Shown here: piece by piece, positions 1,623 through 64,000 of the stretch
Position numbering within the stretch: the first letter of the stretch is position 1
Layout of the letters: each line of letters opens with the position of its first letter
Source: Sphaerisporangium sp. TRM90804
GTDB taxonomy: Bacteria > Actinomycetota > Actinomycetes > Streptosporangiales > Streptosporangiaceae
Assembly: GCF_029846175.1 (NCBI RefSeq)
Contig: NZ_JARWAC010000002.1
Location: forward strand, 282,028 to 346,027
Direction of reading: 5' to 3'
DNA: 64,000 nucleotides
The notes under the pieces: model-generated
Told to the model about the DNA's origin: nothing
The model's database searches: none
Seen by the model: the letters and a program-made list of their open reading frames with translations, nothing else
Made by a program: the position numbers and the translations under genes

Positions 1623-2450
1623 ATGACGTTTCTGGTGACCGGGGCGACGGGCGCCGTCGGCCGGCACGTGGTCGGCCACCTGCTCCGCGCGGGCCGGAGG
1701 GTGCGTGCGCTGACCCGGGACCCGGCCAAGGCCCGCCTGCCGGAGTCGGTGGAGGTCGTGCGCGGCGACCTCGCCGACCCCGGAACGCTGTACCCGGCCT
1801 TCGAGGGGGTCGAGGGCGTGCACCTGCTGACCGCCGGCGGCGACGACTACGCCACGCTGCGGACCGGGCCGGAGCTGGCCGAGCTGGCGCGGAAGGCGGG
1901 GGTGCGCCGCGTCGCGCTGCTGTGGAACGGCCGGGTGGGCCCGGTGGAGGAGGCCTTCGCGGCGAGCGCCGTCGAGTGGACCAGGCTGCAGCCGGTCGAC
2001 TTCATGAGCAACACGCTCTCCTGGGCGCCAGCCATCAGGGCCCAGGGCGAGGTCCACGTGCCGTTCGCCGACGTCCCCGGCGGGATCGTCGACGAGGCCG
2101 ACGTCGCCGCCGTCGCCGCGACGGTGCTCATGGGCGACGGCCACGCGGGCGAGACCTACGTGCTGACCGGCCCAGAAACGCTCACCCAGCGCGAACGGCT
2201 GGCAGCGATCGCCAAGGCCACCGGCCGCCCCCTCCGCCTGGTAGAACTCACCCGGGAGCAGGCCCGCGAGCGATGGCGGGAGGCGGGCCACGGCGAAGAA
2301 CTCATCGACCTGCTCACCTCCTGGCAGAGCAACCCACCCCCCGAGTCCACCGCCATCTCCCCCGCCGTCCGCGACCTCACCGGCCGCACCCCCCGCCCCT
2401 TCGCCGCCTGGGCCACCGAACACGCCCCCCACTTCACCCCGAAGACATAG
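1623..2450 (+). CDS. NmrA-like NAD(P)H-binding reductase
   Basis: A 275-residue atypical short-chain reductase. The N-terminus has the dinucleotide-binding loop TGATGAVGRHV (residues 5-15), followed by R-x-L-T-R-D-P, typical of NmrA/quinone-reductase-like proteins that bind NADP(H). A DADVAAVAA-like segment (EADVAAVAATVL) and the C-terminal helices fit the NmrA family. The ATG at 1623 is preferred because it begins exactly at the beta-strand before the glycine loop and has a GAAGGGC Shine-Dalgarno-like sequence upstream; the longer reading frame adds low-complexity sequence from the repeat region. It is monocistronic. The substrate is unknown: family members range from redox sensors to quinone and isoflavone reductases. 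Confidence 0.88.
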   Translation: MTFLVTGATGAVGRHVVGHLLRAGRRVRALTRDPAKARLPESVEVVRGDLADPGTLYPAFEGVEGVHLLTAGGDDYATLRTGPELAELARKAGVRRVALLWNGRVGPVEEAFAASAVEWTRLQPVDFMSNTLSWAPAIRAQGEVHVPFADVPGGIVDEADVAAVAATVLMGDGHAGETYVLTGPETLTQRERLAAIAKATGRPLRLVELTREQARERWREAGHGEELIDLLTSWQSNPPPESTAISPAVRDLTGRTPRPFAAWATEHAPHFTPKT

Positions 2451-2661
2451 AAACGCGGCTGCGCTTCCTCGCCCCTCGACGAAGGCATCTCACCCGGCGG
2501 CCACCAGCACGAGCCCGGACCATCCGGATCCTCAGAGCGCGTACCGCGATCAGCGCGAGACGCCCCCTCCCGGGGGAGACGGCCCGCGACCGTCCATGTC
2601 AGCCTCGCAGCCCAAACCACGCGCATTACGCTTAGCATCTGAGTGACTACGCCAGAAGACT

Positions 2662-2985
2662 CTGCGCGGTGACATGCACCGCATGCGCTCACCACGCGAA
2701 GCGGTCGGTCATGAACAACGCGGCGAGCGCTTCGCCGTACTTCTGCAATCCGACGCGCTCGCCGCACTGTCTACGTTGATCGTCGCGCCGACGTCCACGA
2801 GTGCCCGTCCAATGAGCTTCCGTCCCGAGATCGAGTTCAACGGCAAGACGCCGCGCGTCCTCGTCGATCAGCTCAAGGCGGTCGACTCATCCGGACTCGG
2901 CGACTTCGCAGGACGGTTGGACCGAGTGGAACTCGTTGAGATCGACGAAGCACTTCACCTCATGTTGGGTCTGCTCACGACCTAG
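2662..2985 (+). CDS. MazF/PemK-like toxin, start codon unclear, no visible antitoxin
   Basis: The product matches the compact MazF/PemK endoribonuclease fold: an LRGDMHRMR N-terminal strand, a GHEQRGERFAVLLQSD core, VAPTSTSA, a FRPEIE strand, RVLVDQLKAVD and a C-terminal helix ending LMLGLL. The R-G-D and GHEQRG elements lie in the loop that carries catalytic residues in the family. The first ATG (2674) would cut off the conserved RGD strand. The frame is open upstream only to a TGA at 2644, and the only candidate start there is CTG at 2662. No antitoxin-like short gene is recognisable in 2451-2640. It could therefore be a toxin using a rare start or a 5'-decayed relic. Codon third positions are less GC-biased than in the neighbours, in keeping with acquisition. 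Confidence 0.6.
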   Translation: MRGDMHRMRSPREAVGHEQRGERFAVLLQSDALAALSTLIVAPTSTSARPMSFRPEIEFNGKTPRVLVDQLKAVDSSGLGDFAGRLDRVELVEIDEALHLMLGLLTT

Positions 2986-3053
2986 CGATTCGCGGCACGG
3001 GCGGCGCGCGTCCAGCACCGACAGACCATGATGCGCGTCGTGGACGGCGGAGG

Positions 3054-4109
3054 TCAGCCGGTGGGGAGCATCAGGTCGTCAAGGGGGAGGGAACGCAGGA
3101 AGTTCTCGGGGTCGAGGAGTTCACCGGCGGTGGCGGTGCCGGTGGCTCGGACTCGGCCGGTGAGGATGCGCTCGGTGGCCTCGACCACGATCGGGGCGGT
3201 GACGGCGTAGATGTCGCGGCCGAGGGCCGCCGCGCGGCGGTGTTCGTAGCCTCGGCGGACGACGACCTCGACCAGGAAGACCTGGGCCGATCGGCCGTCG
3301 GGGCCGGCGGCCTGCGGGCCCTTGGTCTCCGGGTCGCCGAGGTCCTTCAGAGGGGTGAGGTTCAGGTAGGCGTCGATGCGCGCGGTGTCCAGGTGCTGGG
3401 AGACGGTGACCACGTCGGTGGTGGAGAACTGCCCCACGACCTCCTGGGGCCCGAACGGGTCGGGGAACGTCCAAGTGCTTCTCGGCGGCGGCTCGTCGCC
3501 CGCGAGGACCCGCAGGTGGTGGTCGGCGAAGACCACCCGCCGCCCGGCGCGGCGCTCGCCGGCCAGCAGGGTGCCCCGGGTGGGGTGCCAACTGTCCAGG
3601 GCGACCGCGATCGAGATCTCGTCGGCCGCCGGCCAGTCGCCCATCGCGGCCGTGGCGAGCAGGTCGCCCAGCGCGCCGTAGAACGCCATCACCGGCGCCA
3701 CCACGATGCCCGCCTCCTTGACCCGCGGGTCGTCCCGGTAGGTCTCGAAGGTGCCCATCGCGACGAGGGCCTCGCCGGTGACGTCCAGGTAGTGGATACC
3801 GGCGCGCAGCGCGGCCTCGATCATCGGCGGCGCGGTGTCGCTGAACGGCCCGGCGCAGTTGATCACCGCGCCCGCCCCGGCGATAGCACGGTCGAGCGAG
3901 GCCTGGTCGTCGGCCGAGGCCACCCGCCACTCCACGCCGGGATGAGCGGTGGCGGCCGCCTCCAGCTTCGCCGCGTCCCGCCCGGACAGCACCGGCGTCC
4001 AGCCGCGCTCCAGCAGCTCCGCCGTCACGAACCGGGCCGTGTGCCCGTAGGCGCCGAACACCGCGACCACCGGCTTCGCCCGCCCGGGGCGGTTGTCGGT
4101 CCGCGTCAT
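3054..4109 (-). CDS. saccharopine dehydrogenase-like NADP-binding oxidoreductase
   Basis: A 351-residue protein with an N-terminal Rossmann fold (VFGAYGHTARFV, then SGRD after the second strand) and the INCAGPF signature of saccharopine-dehydrogenase-like and trans-acting enoyl-reductase proteins. Function in lysine metabolism is unlikely, because these short family members act mostly on lipids or unknown substrates. It diverges from the GlxA/AraC-type regulator across only 95 bp, so that regulator is a reasonable candidate to control it. The ATG start is supported by the position of the first strand and an AGGAG motif just upstream (reverse complement of CTCCT near 4115). Confidence 0.85.
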   Translation of the reverse strand: MTRTDNRPGRAKPVVAVFGAYGHTARFVTAELLERGWTPVLSGRDAAKLEAAATAHPGVEWRVASADDQASLDRAIAGAGAVINCAGPFSDTAPPMIEAALRAGIHYLDVTGEALVAMGTFETYRDDPRVKEAGIVVAPVMAFYGALGDLLATAAMGDWPAADEISIAVALDSWHPTRGTLLAGERRAGRRVVFADHHLRVLAGDEPPPRSTWTFPDPFGPQEVVGQFSTTDVVTVSQHLDTARIDAYLNLTPLKDLGDPETKGPQAAGPDGRSAQVFLVEVVVRRGYEHRRAAALGRDIYAVTAPIVVEATERILTGRVRATGTATAGELLDPENFLRSLPLDDLMLPTG

Positions 4110-56241: not shown

Positions 56242-57648
56242 CTAGCGGGGGGACATGGCCGGGGCGCGGTCGGCGGGCGGGGCCGGGGGCGGTGCCGAGT
56301 TGCCGGCGTGGTCGTCCACCAGGGTGGCCTCGTCGAAGGGAGCCCGGCCGGCGAGGACCTCCTCGGCGCGGTCACGGTCGAAGTCGTCGACCCACGTGGC
56401 GATCAGGACGGTGGCCACGGCGTTGCCGGCGAAGTTGGTCAGCGCGCGCGCCTCGGACATGAACCGGTCGATGCCGACGATGAGGCCCACGCCGTCCACC
56501 AGGGCGGGGCGGTGCGACTGGAGCGCGCCGGCCAGCGTGGCGAGGCCCGCGCCGGTGACGCCCGCGGCGCCCTTGGAGGCGATCATCATGAAGATCAGCA
56601 GGGAGACCTGCTCGCCGATCGACAGCGGGGCGCCGGTCGCGCTGGCCACGAACAGCGTCGCCATCGTCAGGTAGATCATGGTGCCGTCGAGGTTGAACGA
56701 GTAGCCCGTCGGCACGGTGATGCCGACGACCGTGCGGCTCGCCCCGAGGTGCTCCATCTTGGCGATCAGGCGGGGAAGCGCCGACTCCGAGGAGGACGTC
56801 GACAGGATGAGCAGGAACTCGCGGCCCAGGTAGCGCAGCAGCGACCAGAGGTTGATACGGGCGACGAGCCACAGCACAGGGCCGAGCACGAAGCCGACGA
56901 ACAGCACGCAGGTCAGGTAGAAGCCCAGCATGAGCATGCCGAGGCTCGCCAGCGCGTCGAACCCGCCCGCGCCGGTGACCGCCGCCATGGCGCCGAACGC
57001 GCCGATCGGGGCGGCCCACATGATCATGGCCAGGATGCGGAACACCAGCCGCTGGATGTGGGCGATGCCGGACAGGATCGGCGCCCCGCGGGTGCCCATG
57101 AGCTGCAGCGCGAAGCCGGTGAGCAGCGCCACCAGCAGCGTCTGCAGCACCTGCCCCTCGGTGAACGCCGAGACCAGCGTCGTCGGGATGATGCCGAGCA
57201 GGAAGGTGACCGTGTCGCTCTCGCCGCCCTTGGCGGCCTGCTCCTCGCCGGCCTTGCGCAGCTCGTCGGTCAGCAGCAGGCCCTCGCCCGGGTGGACCAG
57301 GTTGCCCACCACGAGGCCGATGAGCAGCGCGACCAGGGACATGGTGATGAAGTAGCCCAGCGCCAGGCCGCCCACCTTGCCGACCTTGGCGGCCTGCGCC
57401 ACCGAGCCGACGCCGAGCACGATGGTGCAGAAGATGATGGGGCTGATCATCATCTTGATCAGGTTGACGAAGCCGGTGCCGAGCGGCTTCAGGGCCACCC
57501 CGGCGTCGGGGGCCGCCAGGCCGACCGCGATGCCCGCGATCACCGCGATGATCACGCCGATGTACAACCAGTGAGTGCGGTCCCGGTGCGCCGGGCGCGG
57601 GGACGGGTCCGGGGGCTGAGGCGCCGCCGGGGGCGTAGGCGTGGTCAC
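56242..57648 (-). CDS. dctA: C4-dicarboxylate/proton (DAACS) symporter, DctA-like
   Basis: A 468-residue secondary transporter. The re-entrant-loop motif STSSSESALPRL and the unwound-helix motif TGYSFNLDGTMIYL are diagnostic for the dicarboxylate/amino-acid:cation symporter family. The tail is acidic and Pro-rich. Divergent from a CitA/DcuS-type two-component system, as in many C4-dicarboxylate uptake loci, so its expression is probably switched on by malate, fumarate or succinate. A CRP-like palindrome sits in its upstream region. GTG 57648. Confidence 0.92.
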   Translation of the reverse strand: MTTPTPPAAPQPPDPSPRPAHRDRTHWLYIGVIIAVIAGIAVGLAAPDAGVALKPLGTGFVNLIKMMISPIIFCTIVLGVGSVAQAAKVGKVGGLALGYFITMSLVALLIGLVVGNLVHPGEGLLLTDELRKAGEEQAAKGGESDTVTFLLGIIPTTLVSAFTEGQVLQTLLVALLTGFALQLMGTRGAPILSGIAHIQRLVFRILAMIMWAAPIGAFGAMAAVTGAGGFDALASLGMLMLGFYLTCVLFVGFVLGPVLWLVARINLWSLLRYLGREFLLILSTSSSESALPRLIAKMEHLGASRTVVGITVPTGYSFNLDGTMIYLTMATLFVASATGAPLSIGEQVSLLIFMMIASKGAAGVTGAGLATLAGALQSHRPALVDGVGLIVGIDRFMSEARALTNFAGNAVATVLIATWVDDFDRDRAEEVLAGRAPFDEATLVDDHAGNSAPPPAPPADRAPAMSPR

Positions 57649-57710
57649 GCGGCCCTCCTTGTCGTGGTGAGGATGGTGTTACGTCCGGTCGAGCGACTAT
57701 GCCGCGCGCA

Positions 57711-57724
57711 GTGACCTAGGTCAC
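57711..57724. promoter_or_regulatory. CRP-like palindrome
   Basis: GTGACCTAGGTCAC, a perfect 14-bp inverted repeat. It fits the cAMP-receptor-protein pattern GTGA-N6-TCAC, and also GTG-N6-GNCAC described for Streptomyces Crp. Located 62 bp upstream of the symporter start, between divergent genes. Confidence 0.65.
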
Positions 57725-57888
57725 CATTGCGTACATTTCGTGCATTGCGGTGGTTGGCCGTAGTGTGCCCGCGACGAGCAGGAACGCGCTCCGGCGGCCA
57801 TGACGGCTCGCTACCCCCGGAGACGCCCGACCATGTGAAGCCGGCGGTGATCCTTGAACAGCCCCGCTGAGCCCCCACGTCCAAGCCG

Positions 57889-59517
57889 ATGAACGCGACG
57901 GTACCGAGAAGGATCAAGGCACGCCTGGGACGGCTGAGCCTGGCGCGCCAGATGCTCGCGCTCCAGGTGGTGGTCGTCGGCGTCACCGTGGCGGGCGGCA
58001 TCATGCTCGCCGCCTTCCAGACCCGCGACCTGCTCGTCGACGAGGCCGCCAGGACGGCCGGCGCGACGGCGGTGAGCGTCGCCGCGTCCCCGTCCGTCCT
58101 CGACGCGCTCGACGACCCCGACCCCTCCGCCGCGCTCCAGCCGTACGCCGAGCGGGTGCGCCTGGAGGCCGGGCTGGACTTCATCACGATCATGAGCACG
58201 GCCGGGCTGCGGTACACCCATCCGGACCCCGGGCGCATCGGAGGCCGGTTCCTCGGCAACACGGCGCCCGCCCTGGCCGGGACCACGTTCACCGAGACCT
58301 ACACCGGCACGCTGGGGCCGTCGGTGCGCGCCGTCACGCCGGTGCGCGACGCCGGCGGGCGGGTGCGCGCGCTGGTCAGCGCGGGCATCACGATCGAGAA
58401 GATCAGCGCGCAACTCCGCGAGCGGGTGGTGGGCGCGGTGCTCACCGGCGCGCTCGGGCTGTCGGCGGGCACCGCGGGCACGTACCTGGTCAGCGCGCGC
58501 CTGCGCCGCCAGACCCACGGGATGCGGTCGGCCGAGCTGAGCCGCATGTACGAGTACCACAACGCGATCCTGCACGCGGTGCGCGAGGGGCTCCTGCTGC
58601 TGGACGGCGAGCACCGGCTGACCCTGTCCAACGACGGCGCGCGGGAGCTGCTCGGCCTGCCCGCGGGCGCCGAGGGCCTGCACGTCGCCGACCTCGGGCT
58701 GCCGCCCTCCCTGGCCGAGTCCCTGGACTCCGGCGAGGACCGCGCCGACGAGATCCACCTGACCGGCGATCGGGTGCTCGTGGTGAGCTGCGCCGTCGTC
58801 CGGTCAGGCTCACGCTCGCTGGGCACGGTGGTGACCCTGCGCGACCACACCGAGCTCCAGGCGCTCACCGGCCAGCTCGACGCCGAGCGCGGGTTCGCCG
58901 AGTCGCTCCGCTCGGCCGCGCACGAGGCGGCCAACCGGCTGCACACGGTGGTGACGCTCGTCGAGCTCGGCCGGGGCGAGCAGGCGGTGGCGTTCGCCAC
59001 GGCGGAGCTGCGGGCGGCCCAGCAGCTCACCGACCGCGTGGTCGGCGCGGTGCGCGAACCCGTGCTGGCGGCCCTGCTGCTCGGCAAGACCGCCGAGGCT
59101 GCCGAGCGGGGCGTCGAGCTGCGCATCGACCCGGAAAGCGAGCTGGACGACGTCACCCTCGACGCCCGCGACCTGGTCACCATCCTCGGCAACCTGATCG
59201 ACAACGCGGTGGAGGCGGCGACGGGCGGCGCCCCGCCCGCGGTCGTTTCCGTCCGCCTGCGCGGGGACGACGGCGTGTTCCTGTTCCGCGTCACCGACAG
59301 CGGGCCCGGGCTGGGCCCGGAGGCGGCCGAGGAGGCGTTCCGGCGCGGATGGACGACCAAGGGCGACGGCCGGGGCCTGGGGCTGGCGATGGTGGCCCAG
59401 GCGGTCCGCCGGCTGCGCGGCACCGTCGAGGTCGCGCGGGCCGGCGAGGGCACGGTCTTCAGCGTCCGGCTGCCCCTCCCGGACGCCGCGCCGGGCTCGG
59501 GGAGGGACGAGCCGTGA
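57889..59517 (+). CDS. CitA/DcuS/DctB-type sensor histidine kinase
   Basis: A 542-residue membrane kinase. Helix 1 at about 20-42; a PAS-like extracytoplasmic sensor (43-175) with YTHPDPGRIGGRF and ETYTGTLGPSVRAVTPV, typical of dicarboxylate/citrate sensors; helix 2 at about 185-205; a cytoplasmic PAS; the SpoOB-like H-box LRSAAHEAANRLHTV; and the HATPase with N-box NLIDNAVEA and GRGLGLAMV. The usual phenylalanine of HEFxN is Ala here. It overlaps the response regulator by four bases. Confidence 0.92.
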   Translation: MNATVPRRIKARLGRLSLARQMLALQVVVVGVTVAGGIMLAAFQTRDLLVDEAARTAGATAVSVAASPSVLDALDDPDPSAALQPYAERVRLEAGLDFITIMSTAGLRYTHPDPGRIGGRFLGNTAPALAGTTFTETYTGTLGPSVRAVTPVRDAGGRVRALVSAGITIEKISAQLRERVVGAVLTGALGLSAGTAGTYLVSARLRRQTHGMRSAELSRMYEYHNAILHAVREGLLLLDGEHRLTLSNDGARELLGLPAGAEGLHVADLGLPPSLAESLDSGEDRADEIHLTGDRVLVVSCAVVRSGSRSLGTVVTLRDHTELQALTGQLDAERGFAESLRSAAHEAANRLHTVVTLVELGRGEQAVAFATAELRAAQQLTDRVVGAVREPVLAALLLGKTAEAAERGVELRIDPESELDDVTLDARDLVTILGNLIDNAVEAATGGAPPAVVSVRLRGDDGVFLFRVTDSGPGLGPEAAEEAFRRGWTTKGDGRGLGLAMVAQAVRRLRGTVEVARAGEGTVFSVRLPLPDAAPGSGRDEP

Positions 59518-60185
59518 TCTCGGTTCTGATCGTCGAGGACGAGGAGCTGACCGCCGAGGCGAACCGCCTGCACGTCCAGCGGGTGCCCGGCTTCGAGGTC
59601 GTGGGCGTGGCCCGCTCGGGCGGGGAGGCGCTGCGGTTCCTGCGCACCCGCCGCGCCGACCTGGTGCTGCTCGACCTGTACCTGCCCGACATGCACGGCC
59701 TCGACCTGTGCCGGACGCTGCGCGCGGCCGGCGTGCTGTGCGACGTGATCGCCGTGACGTCCGCGCGCGACCTGTCGGTGGTCCGGTCGGCGGTGTCGGT
59801 GGGGGTCGTCCAGTACCTGCTCAAGCCCTTCGGCTTCGCCGCGCTGAGCGAGAAGCTCGAACGCTACGCCGAGTTCCGCTCCTCGACGGGACGCGCCGGG
59901 GAGGTCAGCGGCCAGGGTGAGGTGGACCGCGCGCTGTCGGCTCTGCGGGGGACGGGGAGGTCGGCGCTGCCGAAGGGGATGACCGAGGCCACCCTGGAGG
60001 CGGTGGCGGCCGAGCTGCGCAAGGCCCCGGAGGGGATGTCGGCGCAGGCCGTGGGCGCGGCCATCGGCGTCTCCCGGGTCACGGCCCGGCGGTACCTGGA
60101 GCACCTCGTCGAGACGGGCGCCCTGCGCCGGGTCCCGCGGTACGGCGGGCTCGGACGGCCGGAGCTGGTCTACCAAGGGACCTGA
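59514..60185 (+). CDS. CitB/DcuR-type response regulator
   Basis: A 223-residue regulator. Receiver domain: acidic pair VEDEELTAEA, phospho-acceptor Asp in LVLLDLYLPD, Thr in VTSARD and Lys in LLKPFGF. The C-terminal half has a winged-helix/HTH region (MSAQAVGAAIGVSRVTARRYLEHLVETG, partly listed) of the CitB type. GTG 59514 overlaps the kinase stop. Expected to activate the divergent symporter gene. Confidence 0.93.
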   Translation: MISVLIVEDEELTAEANRLHVQRVPGFEVVGVARSGGEALRFLRTRRADLVLLDLYLPDMHGLDLCRTLRAAGVLCDVIAVTSARDLSVVRSAVSVGVVQYLLKPFGFAALSEKLERYAEFRSSTGRAGEVSGQGEVDRALSALRGTGRSALPKGMTEATLEAVAAELRKAPEGMSAQAVGAAIGVSRVTARRYLEHLVETGALRRVPRYGGLGRPELVYQGT

Positions 60186-60418: not shown

Positions 60419-60917
60419 GATTCCCCCTAAGTCCTGAGAAGGATCGTGTCCAGCACCGGAGCGGAGAAACCCGCCGACCCCACCTCCGAGAAACCGGCTG
60501 CGCGAGTCTTTACGCCCCTGGTGCAGCCCGAAAAAGGACCGGCGAGGGGTCGGCGGAGGCTTACACGAGACCGATTCGGGTTCGGCTCCGCCAGTCAAGC
60601 TGGTAAGACGGCACCGCCGGCGGCCACGGCCGCCCTCGACGGGCCCGGCCGTCCGGCCGGCCGGAACACACTTCGGCCGCAGGCCAGGGGGTGTATCCAG
60701 CGGGCTGTATCCCTCGTATGACCGTAACCCAGGAAATTTGCTCAAGTCAGGGACTTGTCTGGAGATGAGGAATCACAGGTCAATGAGGCCGACTGTGACG
60801 AGAGTCATGAAACCAATAGTGACATGTGCATATGTCGGCAATGGAAAGCGTCACTAGGCACGGCTGGGGTTATCCGTAATTCTCCTCCTAGCGATCGAAC
60901 GGGAGAGGGTGCGACGG
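60419..60917 (+). other. 499-bp intergenic region upstream of the lanthipeptide locus
   Basis: No gene is supported. The second half (60730-60900) is clearly AT-richer than the genome average here and contains the inverted repeat at 60821-60836 plus a possible -10 (TAATTC near 60878) without a clear -35. The locus promoter is expected here. Confidence 0.5.
60821..60836. promoter_or_regulatory. inverted repeat, candidate regulator-binding site
   Basis: GACATGTGCATATGTC reads the same on both strands at 14 of 16 positions. It lies about 80-97 bp before the LanKC start, where a RamR-like activator or another regulator could bind. Confidence 0.45.
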
Positions 60918-63713
60918 GTGATCGACAAATACGAGATGTATTGCCTGGCCGATCCACTGTTTTACGACACCCTTGACAACCAGCGCACCAGGTACCCTGA
61001 CTACGCTATAGCAGGGAATGAGGTACCGGCCGGCTGGCAGCACCGCGCCACCGAAACCTGGCTCCACTACGTGCCCGAGGACAACTCACTACCCCTTCAG
61101 GGCTGGAAGATTCATGTGTCCTCCTGCCTGGAGGACGCGGAGCGCACTCTTGAGGCCGTCTGGGACTACTGCGTGGGCCGCCGGCTGCCGTTCAAGTTCC
61201 TGCGCGGGCCGCGCGTCGTCATCATGCTCAACTCCAAGTACGCCGACCGGGGCAGCAGCGGCAAGCTGGTGACGATCTACCCGTCGGACGAGAACGAGAT
61301 GGAGCTGGTGCTCAAGGAGCTCGGCGAGCTCCTGCACGGCGTCCGCGGGCCGTACATCCTCAGCGACCTGCGCATCGGCGAGGGCCCGCTGTTCGTCCGG
61401 TACGGCGGCTTCGCCGAGCGGTACTGCCTGACCAGCGGCCGCGAGCGTGTCCTGGCCATCGAGGACGCGGACGGCGTCCTGGTGCCCGACCGGCGGGGGC
61501 CCACGTTCTCCCCTCCCCCGTGGATCACGCTGCCCGACTTCCTGGAGCCGCACCTCGCCGCGCGCAACGCGGTGACCGTCGGCGACCTGCCGTACAAGAT
61601 CGAGAAGGTGCTGCACTTCTCCAACGGCGGCGGCGTGTACAAGGCGGTCGACACCCGCACCGGCGAGGTCGTGGTGCTCAAGGAGGCCAGGCCGCACGCC
61701 GGGCTGGACGCCATCGGACGCGACGCGGTCGCGCGCCTCCAGTACGAGGCGCAGATCATGCGCCGCCTGGAGGGGCTGCGGGTCGTCCCGGCCATCCGCG
61801 ACTACTTCACGCTGGGCGACCACCACTTCCTGGTGGAGGAGTTCATCGACGGCACCACGCTGAGCCAGGAGTCGATCCACCGCCACCCGCTCACCCGGGC
61901 CCACATCTCCGACGAGGACGCCGCCGAGTTCACCGAGTGGGCGCTCGACATGCTCGCCCGCGTCGACGAGGCCGTCAGCGCCCTGCACGAGCGCGGAGTC
62001 GTCTTCGGCGACCTGCACCCGTTCAACATCCTGGTGGAGGGCGACCGGGTCGTCCTGATCGACTTCGAGGTGGCGACGCTCGCCGAGCAGAAGGCGCGGC
62101 CGACCCTGGCCCACCCCGGCTTCTGCCCGCCGCCCGACCGCCTCGGCGTGGAGGCCGACAAGTACGCCCAGGCGTGCCTGCGACTCGGCCTCTTCGCCCC
62201 CATGTCGACGGTGCTGATCCCGCTCCACCGCGCCAAGGCGATCCACCTGGCCGAGATGGTGCGCACCACCTTCCCCGTGCCGCGGGAGTTCGTGGACGAG
62301 GCCGTCCGCACCATCCTGGGCGACGACGCCGGCACCCTCGGCGCCCCGGCCGCGGAGACGTCACCGGTGGACGCCGGGCGCCCCGCCGCGGCCACCGAAC
62401 GGACCTCTCCCGCGAGCGCCACGCAGCCGCCCGCGGGAGAGGTCGGCCAAGCGGCCTCGACGGACCGCAAGGAGACCCCGGCGATGGACGCCGCCGCGCG
62501 CAGGCCCGGCCAGGGCACCGGCAGCGCCGGACGCACGGCCATGCGGGAGCTCCCGATGCCCGGCCGCGCGTCCTGGGAAGAGGTGCGCGCCGCGGCCTGC
62601 CGCGCCATCGTGGCCTCGGCCACCCCTGACCGCGCCGACCGGCTCTTCCCCGGCGACGTGGTGCAGTTCCAGCCCGGCGGGGGCCTCAACCTGGCGACCG
62701 GCGCGGCGGGTGTCCTGTACGCCCTGGCGGTGACCGGCGCCGGCCGCTTCCCCGAGTACGAGGCCTGGCTCAAGAAGCACGCCCTGGCCCCCCGGCCCGG
62801 CACCGGCCTCGGCTTCTACGACGGCCTGCACGGCGTCGCCTACGCGTTCGACGCGCTCGGCGACCGGCAGGGCGCCCTCGACCTGGTCGCCCTGCTGCAG
62901 CGGGAGCGGTGGGAGCAGCTCGGCCAGAGCCTGTACGCCGGGCTCTCCGGCATCGGGCTCAACCTCCTGCACTTCGGCCGCACGGCCGGCGAGCCCTCCC
63001 TGGTGGAGGCCGCGGTCAAGGTGACCGGCATGGTGGCCGACCGCCTCGGCTCCGTCGACAGCGTGCCCGAGGTCAGCGGCGGCACCAACCCGCACGCGGG
63101 ACTGCTGCGCGGCTCCTCGGGACCGGCCCTGCTGTTCCTGCGCGTGTACGAGGCCACCGGCGACCCCTCCCTGCTCGACCACGCGGCCGTCGCCCTCCGG
63201 CAGGACCTGCGTCGCTGCACCCACCGCGACGACGGACAGCTCCAGGTGCAGCAGGGATGGCGGACCAATCCGTATCTCGACGAGGGGTCGGCGGGTATCG
63301 GGCTCATCCTCGCCCAGTACCTGGCCCACCGCGAGGACGAGGAGTTCCGGCGGGCGCTCGGGGACATCGCCCCGGTGGCCACCCTGGACTACTACGTGCA
63401 GTCGGGCCTGTTCGCCGGCCGGGGTGGCATGATCTCGGCGCTGTGCGCGGGGATCCGCCCCGGGGTGGACCGCACCTCGCCGCTGGTGGCGGACCAGATC
63501 CGCCGCCTGGCCTGGCACGCGATCCCCTACGGCGACGGGCTCGCCTTCCCCGGCAACCAGTTGCTCCGGCTCTCGATGGACCTCGCGAGCGGCACGGCCG
63601 GCGTGGTCTTCGCACTGGGCACCGCGCTGCACGACCAGCCGGTGCACCTGCCCTTCATCTCGCCTCCCGGCAATCCCGCCGGGCCGGTGGACTCCGACCA
63701 GGAAGGGAGGTGA
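60918..63713 (+). CDS. lanKC: class III lanthipeptide synthetase LanKC (RamC/AmfT-like)
   Basis: A 931-residue three-domain synthetase that phosphorylates Ser/Thr of the precursor, eliminates phosphate and cyclises with Cys. N-terminal lyase domain (1-215; starts YEMYCLADPLFYD). Central Ser/Thr kinase-like domain (about 223-460): Gly loop HFSNGGGVYKA, Lys255 in VVLKEA, catalytic GDLHPFNIL (Asp365, Asn370), IDFEVA (Asp382). A 90-residue Ala/Pro/Thr linker precedes a LanC-like domain (about 555-931). There the zinc-ligand positions read DEGSAGIG and GLFAGRGG instead of Cys and Cys-His, so it lacks zinc ligands as is normal in class III. GTG 60918 is preferred to GTG 60909 because GAGAGGG lies eight bases before it. 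Confidence 0.94.
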   Translation: MIDKYEMYCLADPLFYDTLDNQRTRYPDYAIAGNEVPAGWQHRATETWLHYVPEDNSLPLQGWKIHVSSCLEDAERTLEAVWDYCVGRRLPFKFLRGPRVVIMLNSKYADRGSSGKLVTIYPSDENEMELVLKELGELLHGVRGPYILSDLRIGEGPLFVRYGGFAERYCLTSGRERVLAIEDADGVLVPDRRGPTFSPPPWITLPDFLEPHLAARNAVTVGDLPYKIEKVLHFSNGGGVYKAVDTRTGEVVVLKEARPHAGLDAIGRDAVARLQYEAQIMRRLEGLRVVPAIRDYFTLGDHHFLVEEFIDGTTLSQESIHRHPLTRAHISDEDAAEFTEWALDMLARVDEAVSALHERGVVFGDLHPFNILVEGDRVVLIDFEVATLAEQKARPTLAHPGFCPPPDRLGVEADKYAQACLRLGLFAPMSTVLIPLHRAKAIHLAEMVRTTFPVPREFVDEAVRTILGDDAGTLGAPAAETSPVDAGRPAAATERTSPASATQPPAGEVGQAASTDRKETPAMDAAARRPGQGTGSAGRTAMRELPMPGRASWEEVRAAACRAIVASATPDRADRLFPGDVVQFQPGGGLNLATGAAGVLYALAVTGAGRFPEYEAWLKKHALAPRPGTGLGFYDGLHGVAYAFDALGDRQGALDLVALLQRERWEQLGQSLYAGLSGIGLNLLHFGRTAGEPSLVEAAVKVTGMVADRLGSVDSVPEVSGGTNPHAGLLRGSSGPALLFLRVYEATGDPSLLDHAAVALRQDLRRCTHRDDGQLQVQQGWRTNPYLDEGSAGIGLILAQYLAHREDEEFRRALGDIAPVATLDYYVQSGLFAGRGGMISALCAGIRPGVDRTSPLVADQIRRLAWHAIPYGDGLAFPGNQLLRLSMDLASGTAGVVFALGTALHDQPVHLPFISPPGNPAGPVDSDQEGR

Positions 63714-63720
63714 AGACGAC

Positions 63721-63843
63721 ATGGCACTCCTCGACCTGCAGGACATGGCCCCTGACGGTGGTCACGGCGGCGGCGGCAGCAACCTGAGCCTCCTGGGATG
63801 CACCCCGCACGAGAACAGCAGCCTCAGCATCCTCTGCGGCTGA
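63721..63843 (+). CDS. lanA1: class III lanthipeptide precursor 1 (RamS/AmfS family)
   Basis: A 40-residue precursor too short for most gene finders. The leader begins MALLDLQDM, containing the LLDLQ helix recognised by class III synthetases, followed by a short linker with GGHGGGG. Core: SNLSLLGC (Ser20, Ser23, Cys27; S-x2-S-x3-C) and SSLSILC (Ser33, Ser36, Cys39; S-x2-S-x2-C), joined by TPHEN. Each motif could make a labionin or a lanthionine. ATG follows the LanKC stop by seven bases with a strong GGGAGG. Confidence 0.93.
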   Translation: MALLDLQDMAPDGGHGGGGSNLSLLGCTPHENSSLSILCG

Positions 63844-63896
63844 CGTTCCAGCACGACCAGCACGAGTCAGAAGACATCACGAAAGGACGAAACATC

Positions 63897-64000
63897 ATGG
63901 CGCTTCTCGACCTGCAGAACATGGACGTTCCCACCGGCGGCGGCGGTGGCGGCTCCAACCTGAGCCTCGTCGGGTGCACCCCCCACGAGAACAGCAGCCT
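63897..64000 (+). CDS. lanA2: class III lanthipeptide precursor 2 (cut by window end)
   Basis: The first 34 codons are present. The leader MALLDLQNM and the core SNLSLVGCTPHENSSL are nearly identical to precursor 1 (LLGC replaced by LVGC); the linker is TGGGGGG. AAAGGA lies eight bases upstream. The second ring motif and stop lie beyond the window. Clearly a tandem duplicate of precursor 1. Confidence 0.92.
   Translation, partial: MALLDLQNMDVPTGGGGGGSNLSLVGCTPHENSS

What the first reader, a model, noticed from the sequence alone, without database searches (positions are those of the whole stretch)
63721..64000. Two tandem class III lanthipeptide precursors with a short second ring motif and a Gly-rich leader end
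SapB/RamS and AmfS carry S-x2-S-x3-C in both ring regions. Here the first motif has it (SNLSLLGC) but the second in precursor 1 is S-x2-S-x2-C (SSLSILC), so its ring would be one residue smaller. The leader ends in GGHGGGG / GGGGGG, unlike RamS leaders. Two near-identical copies that differ at one core residue suggest a two-component or variant product. Family assignment comes from the LLDLQ leader motif and the adjacent LanKC. Novelty of the product is inference.
Basis: partly seen in the sequence, partly recalled or inferred. Interest (0 to 1): 0.8.

Follow-up and report, generated by a model that had tools for sequence, protein, structure and literature searches.

The report
Small-ring cousin of the SapB peptide
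This actinobacterium carries a five-gene set of the known SapB/AmfS kind (one modifying enzyme, two near-identical small peptides, two exporters) that is predicted to make a two-ring peptide which likely helps aerial filaments rise; one spacing in the peptide is a residue shorter than in SapB, so its second ring would be smaller, and the related loci examined that share this spacing fall on a single branch.

Summary
Precursor 1 (63721-63843) and precursor 2 (63897-64000, finished on contig C23) both encode S-x2-S-x3-C, then S-x2-S-x2-C; their cores differ only at residue 25 (Leu/Val). A LanKC gene lies upstream, two ABC exporter genes downstream. Both precursors pass the NCBIfam and Pfam cut-offs of the SapB/AmfS/RamS family, so the kind is known. 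The short second motif is no error: 48 of 48 copies from 26 loci of six Streptosporangiaceae genera have it, while the 55 other loci fetched fit x3 (three could be read either way). LanKCs of short-motif loci form one clade (SH-aLRT 95 and 99) beside x3 relatives, and two cyclase-domain residues (His726, Asn784) follow the trait. The Gly-rich leader end is shared with x3 relatives. Tandem copies are conservative variants, which argues against a two-component lantibiotic. The published class III motif already allows S-x2-S-x2-5-C. Chemistry, leader protease and morphogen activity are inferred. Verdict: a clade-specific variant of a known kind, of modest interest.

The parts
60918..63713 (+). 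lanKC: class III lanthionine synthetase, 931 aa from GTG 60918 (a GTG at 60909 is also possible; by eye a GGGAGAGG-like ribosome site fits 60918 better)
   Evidence: NF038151 1073 bits (cut-off 575) and Pfam RamC_N, Pkinase, LANC_like; PDB class III LanKC chains 8sao/8sap/8sam, E about 1e-82; only LanKC above cut-off in the genome
62061..62069 (+). DFE motif of the kinase domain (residues 382-384)
   Evidence: DFE is said to be conserved in class III enzymes shown to make labionin (PMC10604976, passage)
63093..63095 (+). LanKC His726: His in 25 of 26 x2 LanKCs (1 Tyr), Arg in 10 of 10 sister x3 and 47 of 51 others
63267..63269 (+). LanKC Asn784: Asn in 26 of 26 x2 LanKCs, Leu in 10 of 10 sister x3, Met/Leu/Val in 51 of 51 others; four residues before the former zinc position
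63279..63281 (+). LanKC Asp788, at the position of NisC zinc ligand Cys284 (ThurKC Ser726); zinc ligands absent
   Evidence: alignment read by hand with a 3-residue numbering offset, ligand names from PMC10604976 (passage), conservation
63411..63416 (+). LanKC Phe832-Ala833, at the positions of NisC Cys330-His331 (ThurKC Phe770-Asp771)
63721..63843 (+). lanA1, precursor 1 (40 aa)
   Evidence: NF033212 49.5 bits, PF19402 43.2 bits; same place between LanKC and exporters in relatives
63757..63777 (+). Gly-rich end of the leader of lanA1 (GGHGGGG)
   Evidence: clade-wide and shared with x3 relatives
63778..63801 (+). first ring motif SNLSLLGC (S20-C27), S-x2-S-x3-C
63817..63837 (+). second ring motif SSLSILC (S33-C39), S-x2-S-x2-C
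63897..64000 (+). lanA2, precursor 2, first 104 nt; the last 19 nt are L004:99-117 (contig C23)
   Evidence: NF033212 55.0 bits. The two ABC exporter genes follow at L004:201-1994 and L004:1991-3742, outside the window

Best explanation
This is a SapB/AmfS-family class III lanthipeptide gene set (one LanKC synthetase, two tandem precursors, two ABC exporters) whose product is predicted to be a secreted two-ring amphipathic peptide that likely helps aerial hyphae emerge, with a second ring that would be one residue smaller than in SapB. Predicted steps: LanKC recognises the LLDLQ leader, phosphorylates and eliminates Ser20, Ser23, Ser33 and Ser36, and its zinc-free cyclase domain adds Cys27 and Cys39 to close two rings (lanthionine, or labionin with the inner Ser). 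The Gly-rich linker is then cut by an unclustered protease and the ABC pair exports the product. The two gene copies likely serve dose, or supply two conservative variants of one product. Shown here: genes, order, motifs, family membership, clustering of the short second motif on one branch of the LanKC tree, and conservation of the core. Inferred: dehydration, ring type, cleavage site, export, function. The loss of one residue in ring 2 likely happened once, in the ancestor of a Streptosporangiaceae subgroup, and may have been accommodated by LanKC changes near the cyclase site (Arg726His, Leu784Asn).
For: Family HMMs above curated cut-offs for LanKC and both precursors. Exporter pair right after precursor 2. 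Of 80 related loci fetched, 25 are x2, and all 25 have LanKC, 1-3 precursors and both ABC genes in this order. Ring 2 is x2 in 48 of 48 copies from 26 loci with the window; 55 of 55 other loci fit x3, three of them also readable as x2. Among 184 proteins held, x2 in 65 of 65 full-length PHENSSLS proteins against x3 in 118 of 118 others; the remaining one is the fragment P0060. LanKC tree of 75 rows: 26 x2 rows on one side of a branch, SH-aLRT 95; 6 broken or over-long x3 rows dropped. With x3 Streptosporangiaceae added and thinned by hand from 89 to 51 rows, the 20 x2 rows are again one clade, SH-aLRT 99. Median dN 0.067 against dS 0.323 over the 20-codon core, 1080 between-locus pairs. SapB and AmfS are morphogens, and a variant of durhapeptin, a same-family product, raised aerial hyphae in 4 strains (PMC13380574, passages).
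Against: No chemistry is seen: ring type and ring size are read from motif spacing only. Ser34 offers an alternative partner, so ring 2 might close elsewhere. No function of an x2 member turned up in the searches. 2 of 11 genomes of the genus lack the family, so it is not needed by the whole genus. No RamR-like regulator was noticed beside it, but the flanks were not scanned for one; [quoted passage not shown] The inter-ring spacer is polar and invariant, which a bare surfactant would not need; but that invariance is partly ascertained, since one of the two patterns of the scan was [GA]CTPHENS and I counted copies by the string PHENSSLS. dN/dS pairs are not independent and the core is short. 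In the same assay that supports the morphogen role, durhapeptin did not act on its own producer or on the SapB and AmfS producers.
Confidence: 0.72

Rival explanations
1. The two precursors make a two-component (alpha/beta) lantibiotic in which both peptides are needed for antibacterial action.
For: Two tandem precursors; 19 of 26 x2 loci have two or three.
Against: Cores are identical in 7 of 19 multi-copy loci and otherwise differ only at residues 25, 26, 37, 38; 7 of 26 loci have a single copy; one LanKC above cut-off in the genome. Roseocin, a two-peptide lantibiotic, has a conserved leader but diverse cores (PMC10027976, abstract in search listing). In a 2020 survey 57% of class III precursors were the only one in their cluster, so several copies are common (PMC7268733, passage).
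Confidence: 0.05
2. The second motif does not give a shortened SapB-type lanthionine ring but closes as a labionin (11- and 13-membered rings by my count) or from Ser34, so the 'one residue smaller' comparison is wrong in detail.
For: Class III products of this group are Lan-only, Lab-only or mixed and are hard to predict from the synthetase (PMC13380574, passage); DFE kinase motif present; Ser34 invariant in 48 of 48 copies.
Against: SapB and AmfS, the characterised relatives, contain two lanthionines (PMC13380574, passage), and SapB carries the same extra Ser in its SSLS (recalled).
Confidence: 0.4
3. An extracellular signal recognised by a receptor rather than a surfactant: the invariant PHENSSLS face is the recognised part.
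For: 14 of 20 core positions invariant in 48 copies of six genera while the ring hydrophobics vary within I/L/V; amf orthologues are described as unusually diverged (PMC4255298, passage) and durhapeptin acted on some species only.
Against: No receptor candidate was looked for; conservation can also come from LanKC recognition or from folding of the rings; copies were selected by PHENSSLS (see above).
Confidence: 0.2
4. The short motif is a sequencing or assembly artefact at a contig end.
For: The window ends inside precursor 2 at a contig end with a 98-base overlap.
Against: Precursor 1 lies wholly inside contig C1, and the same spacing is in 25 other loci; flanking order matches the unbroken contigs L023 and L024.
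Confidence: 0.01

Closest known systems
SapB (RamS/RamC/RamAB, Streptomyces coelicolor) and AmfS (S. griseus)
   Same: LxLQ leader, adjacent zinc-free LanKC, two thioether-ring motifs, two ABC exporters; NF033212/PF19402 membership
   Different: Ring 2 motif has x2, not x3; longer polar spacer CTPHEN between rings; Gly-rich leader end; tandem precursors; no RamR noticed beside it. SapB/AmfS core letters are recalled, not fetched.
Durhapeptin (S. durhamensis)
   Same: SapB/AmfS-family annotation, LanKC of the RamC/AmfT group, proposed morphogen (PMC13380574, passages)
   Different: Two SXXSXXXC motifs, two labionins supported by experiment; one precursor gene
x3 relatives in the window's own family, Kribbella, Jiangella, Amycolatopsis (core STLTxLxC....PSNLSLLLCH)
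   Same: Same gene order, Gly-rich leader end, some with 2-3 tandem copies; sister LanKC clade for ten of them (no Kribbella LanKC was in the tree)
   Different: Second motif x3, spacer letters variable, C-terminal His
Bacinapeptins/paenithopeptins (Firmicutes class III)
   Same: The motif S-(X)2-S-(X)2-5-C is printed for this group and for class III in general (PMC8960859, passage)
   Different: One ring motif, M16B protease pair
Noursin (NorKC, LanKC-Hbt)
   Same: Class III synthetase; core holds a His
   Different: One Cys; His joined to the residue three before it; synthetase group apart from RamC (PMC10206099, passages)

Membership tests
SapB/AmfS-family class III lanthipeptides (NF033212, PF19402) | Precursor over the curated family cut-offs, LxLQ leader | tested here: met
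   49.5 and 55.0 bits (cut-off 25); 43.2 and 47.7 (cut-off 24.3)
SapB/AmfS-family class III lanthipeptides (NF033212, PF19402) | Adjacent LanKC (lyase-kinase-cyclase) over cut-off | tested here: met
   NF038151 1073 bits, cut-off 575; class IV model below its cut-off (372.5 of 650)
SapB/AmfS-family class III lanthipeptides (NF033212, PF19402) | Cyclase domain without zinc ligands | tested here: met
   Asp788, Phe832, Ala833 at the ligand positions, read by hand with PMC10604976 (passage); conservation
SapB/AmfS-family class III lanthipeptides (NF033212, PF19402) | Class III ring motif S-(X)2-S-(X)2-5-C, twice | tested here: met
   x3 and x2; range from PMC8960859 (passage)
Strict SapB/AmfS ring pattern (both motifs S-x2-S-x3-C) | x3 in both motifs | tested here: not met
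   Second motif x2 in both precursors and in all 48 clade copies. Hence filed as a variant, not as a plain SapB.
SapB/AmfS-family class III lanthipeptides (NF033212, PF19402) | Two ABC exporter genes in the cluster | tested here: met
   L004:201-1994 and 1991-3742; no C39 peptidase domain among the Pfam matches listed
SapB/AmfS-family class III lanthipeptides (NF033212, PF19402) | RamR/AmfR-type regulator nearby | tested here: inconclusive
   The neighbouring two-component pair is DcuS/DcuR-like and among the x2 loci was matched only in the five Sphaerisporangium loci; the wider flanks were not scanned for LuxR domains
SapB/AmfS-family class III lanthipeptides (NF033212, PF19402) | Lanthionine/labionin in the product; aerial hyphae activity | not testable with these tools
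   needs MS/NMR and genetics
Two-component lantibiotics | Two diverged, complementary cores | tested here: not met
   cores differ by Leu/Val at residue 25 only; clade-wide only conservative changes
LanKC-Hbt (noursin-like) | One Cys in the core and Thr three residues before His | tested here: not met
   two Cys, Thr28-His30 spacing is two
LanKC-Hbt (noursin-like) | Synthetase in the separate NorKC cyclase group | not tested
   no NorKC sequence was compared

The most novel reading that the evidence does not exclude
The x2 clade makes a peptide of a new topology in which the shortened second ring and the invariant inter-ring PHEN spacer work together: His30 (with Glu31/Asn32) would be a metal ligand or a cross-link partner for a dehydrated Ser33/Ser34, installed by a LanKC whose cyclase site was retuned by Arg726His and Leu784Asn, and the product would be one nearly unchanged developmental signal shared across six genera, unlike the species-diverged SapB/AmfS of Streptomyces.
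Probability: 0.07. Interest if true: 0.7.

Novelty: new variant of a known kind. Interest (0 to 1): 0.36.

Why it matters
SapB-type peptides are the textbook lanthipeptide morphogens of Streptomyces; whether other spore-forming actinobacteria use the same kind is open. Here a subfamily with a one-residue contraction, a clean clustering on one branch and two candidate enzyme residues that track it gives a natural experiment on how a zinc-free LanKC sets ring size, and a conserved core to test whether such peptides are mere surfactants or specific signals.

Tried and rejected
Rejected: sequencing error or pseudogene (same spacing in 25 other loci). Two-component lantibiotic. Gly-rich leader as a mark of novelty or as a double-glycine site for a C39 exporter (75 of 75 PSN[LV]S-type x3 precursors share it; no C39 domain listed for the ABC proteins). 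First reading of the zinc position as Ser791 was wrong: the alignment with ThurKC carries a 3-residue numbering offset against the paper, which puts the ligand position at Asp788. Leader protease: none seen in the locus; the genome holds two matches to the S9 prolyl-oligopeptidase N-terminal family, one to M16_C and three to M1, none tied to this locus. A solved structure for the precursor family: none. In one search precursor 2 of the window was cut one base out of frame, which touched only the DNA identity means; one search repeats that count correctly. Literature: I saw the listings (25 of 32 papers; 3 of 3; 30 of 60; 5 of 5; 10 of 23; 10 of 76; 12 of 18); in these I saw no paper on a Streptosporangiaceae SapB-type peptide, and in the ten rows no occurrence of HENSSLS or LGCTPHEN. 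Two wanted papers are not held. The library is open-licence PMC only.

Full report
What is there. The window ends at the very end of contig C1 (G000:C1:282028-346027). Upstream to downstream lie lanKC (60918-63713), lanA1 (63721-63843) and lanA2 (63897-64000, cut). Contig C23 starts with 98 bases identical to window 63903-64000, completes lanA2 at L004:117, and continues with two ABC exporter genes, the first from ATG L004:201. That the two contigs adjoin is inferred from this overlap and from order: in unbroken contigs of the same genus (L023, L024) the matches to the upstream transporter and two-component pair, lanKC, two precursors, two ABC genes, Asp23-family gene and sigma factor follow each other on one contig.

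Identity of the parts. LanKC passes the class III equivalog model (1073 bits, cut-off 575) and not the class IV one (372.5, cut-off 650), with RamC_N, kinase and LanC-like domains; its best solved relatives by sequence are class III LanKC chains 8sao/8sap/8sam. At the three zinc-ligand positions of NisC (named with their ThurKC counterparts in PMC10604976, passages) it has Asp788, Phe832, Ala833; the placing is by hand from the alignment, whose chain numbering is three behind the paper's. Both precursors pass NF033212 and PF19402. Pfam lists no C39 peptidase for either ABC protein. The genome has one LanKC over the cut-off and no precursor of this family beyond the two (one search lists three places, two of which are the same overlap).

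Is the short second motif real and general? A phmmer search with precursor 1 gave 95 proteins at E <= 1; a profile search with 20 diverse precursors gave 2352 proteins at E <= 0.001 from 7980 scored candidates, of which only the best 120 are listed. Of the 184 distinct proteins held, 65 contain PHENSSLS and all 65 are x3 then x2; 118 others are x3 then x3; one fragment, P0060, is cut before its second Cys. Caveat: one of the two scan patterns was [GA]CTPHENS, the other the leader MALLDLQx[ML][ED], so conservation of the spacer is partly ascertained; I also counted x2 copies by PHENSSLS. In the window's own family an exact DNA pattern for C-T-P-H-E-N-S-S-L was found in 31 of 341 genomes and 6 of 68 genera (a lower bound: one search finds a second copy in G227 that the pattern misses). 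In the genus, 9 of 11 genomes carry the family, 2 none. Of 61 genomes drawn from the family, 22 carry the wider SapB/AmfS family; ten of the loci read there have x3 in both motifs.

One origin. In a LanKC tree of 75 rows the 26 x2 rows lie on one side of one branch (SH-aLRT 95, 0 of 500 label shuffles as clustered). I then fetched 14 more loci of the family; in all 14 the last ring motif of the precursors found is x3. Rebuilt with 51 rows, x2 is again one clade (20 rows, SH-aLRT 99), next to ten x3 rows (98), eight of the window's own family plus Jiangella and Amycolatopsis, all 30 inside a clade at 99. The parsimonious reading is a loss of one residue, x3 to x2, once. Rooting was at the midpoint, for drawing only, so direction is inferred. 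A different contraction exists: L136 (G052) has x2 in its first motif (STLSLLC) and x3 in the second, so x2 rings as such arose more than once.

What the enzyme changed. Scanning LanKC columns (87 rows) for residues fixed in at least 25 of 26 x2 rows, absent from the ten sister x3 rows and near-uniform there gives five positions: 316, 323, 429, 726, 784. Two lie in the cyclase domain: Asn784 (26 of 26; sister Leu 10 of 10; others Met 26, Leu 24, Val 1 of 51), four residues before the former zinc position, and His726 (25 of 26; sister Arg 10 of 10; others Arg 47 of 51), five before the position that aligns with ThurKC Asp667 (placing by hand). Clade-specific residues are expected in any clade, so these are candidates, not causes.

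The core under selection. In 48 copies, 14 of 20 core residues never vary, and ten of these 14 positions still use two codons. Median dN 0.067, dS 0.323 over 1080 between-locus pairs; pairs are not independent. Variation is confined to residue 21 (N/S/Q), 25 (L/V/I), 26 (G/A), 28 (T/V), 37 and 38 (I/L/V). Streptomyces-centred work calls amf orthologues unusually diverged (PMC4255298, passage); I did not measure the x3 cores the same way, so the contrast is untested.

Tandem copies. 19 of 26 x2 loci have two or three copies and 7 have one. Cores are identical in 7 of 19; in 12 they differ only at 25, 26, 37, 38. Core DNA is more alike within a locus (mean 0.947, 25 pairs) than between loci (0.891, 1103 pairs); the window's own pair is 0.883. 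At least four of the x3 loci read also have tandem copies with x3 in both motifs (L128, L130, L132, L134), so duplication is older than, or independent of, the ring change. This fits dose or minor variants, not a two-component system.

How it most likely works (inferred beyond the genes). LanKC binds the LLDLQ leader; Ser20/23/33/36 are phosphorylated and eliminated; Cys27 and Cys39 add to give two lanthionine or labionin units; a protease encoded elsewhere removes the leader in the Gly stretch (searches show only that candidate families are present in the genome); the ABC pair exports it. As lanthionines the rings would be 25 and 22 atoms (my count). Two hydrophobic rings around a polar spacer suit a surface-active peptide, the role proposed for SapB (PMC9011353 and PMC13380574, passages). 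The genera concerned are aerial-mycelium formers (recalled).

Place in what is known. The class, family, gene order and even the x2 spacing range are known; databases already name many of these proteins 'SapB/AmfS family lanthipeptide', and more than 4,000 sequences of that name are said to exist (PMC13380574, passage). What I did not find described, within the listings, is this x2 second-ring clade with its conserved spacer. I therefore call it a new variant of a known kind, interest modest.

Noticed in passing
window 56242-60185: DctA-like transporter, DcuS-like sensor kinase and DcuR-like regulator beside lanKC; among the 80 loci matched only in the five Sphaerisporangium loci L005, L006, L007, L023, L024 (tblastn E <= 1e-10 within the fetched flanks; families), so probably neighbours rather than parts of the cluster.
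   Followed up: partly
L136 (G052:C213), precursor at 3633: A separate ring contraction: first motif STLSLLC (x2), second SSHSITIC (x3), in a LanKC locus outside the x2 clade.
   Followed up: partly
L137 4434 and L138 3578: Class III precursors with an extra S-x2-S-x2-C-like stretch (SSHSKSC, SHYSRGC) before a C-terminal S-x2-S-x3-C ring.
   Followed up: no
L139, L140 (G021, G056): LanKC loci with ILDLQ leaders; three of the four precursors seen carry a single S-x2-S-x3-C ring of the SYLSLLLC kind.
   Followed up: no
G000:C77:394467-395264: A 453-aa frame matching the cyclase part of the LanKC model (38.5 and 28.1 bits): perhaps a LanC-like protein of another cluster in the same genome.
   Followed up: no
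L004:3894-7065 (contig C23): A run of small genes right after the exporters; the first passes PF03780 Asp23 and is matched in the same place in Sphaerisporangium loci; the rest were not scanned.
   Followed up: no
L057 (record named Streptosporangium nondiastaticum): Carries a Streptomyces-type x3 precursor almost identical to those of S. klenkii and S. roseoverticillatus; the record name may be wrong or outdated.
   Followed up: no
window 63903-64000 / L004:1-98: 98-base overlap of two contig ends, as a de Bruijn assembler can leave; perhaps broken by the tandem precursor repeat.
   Followed up: partly
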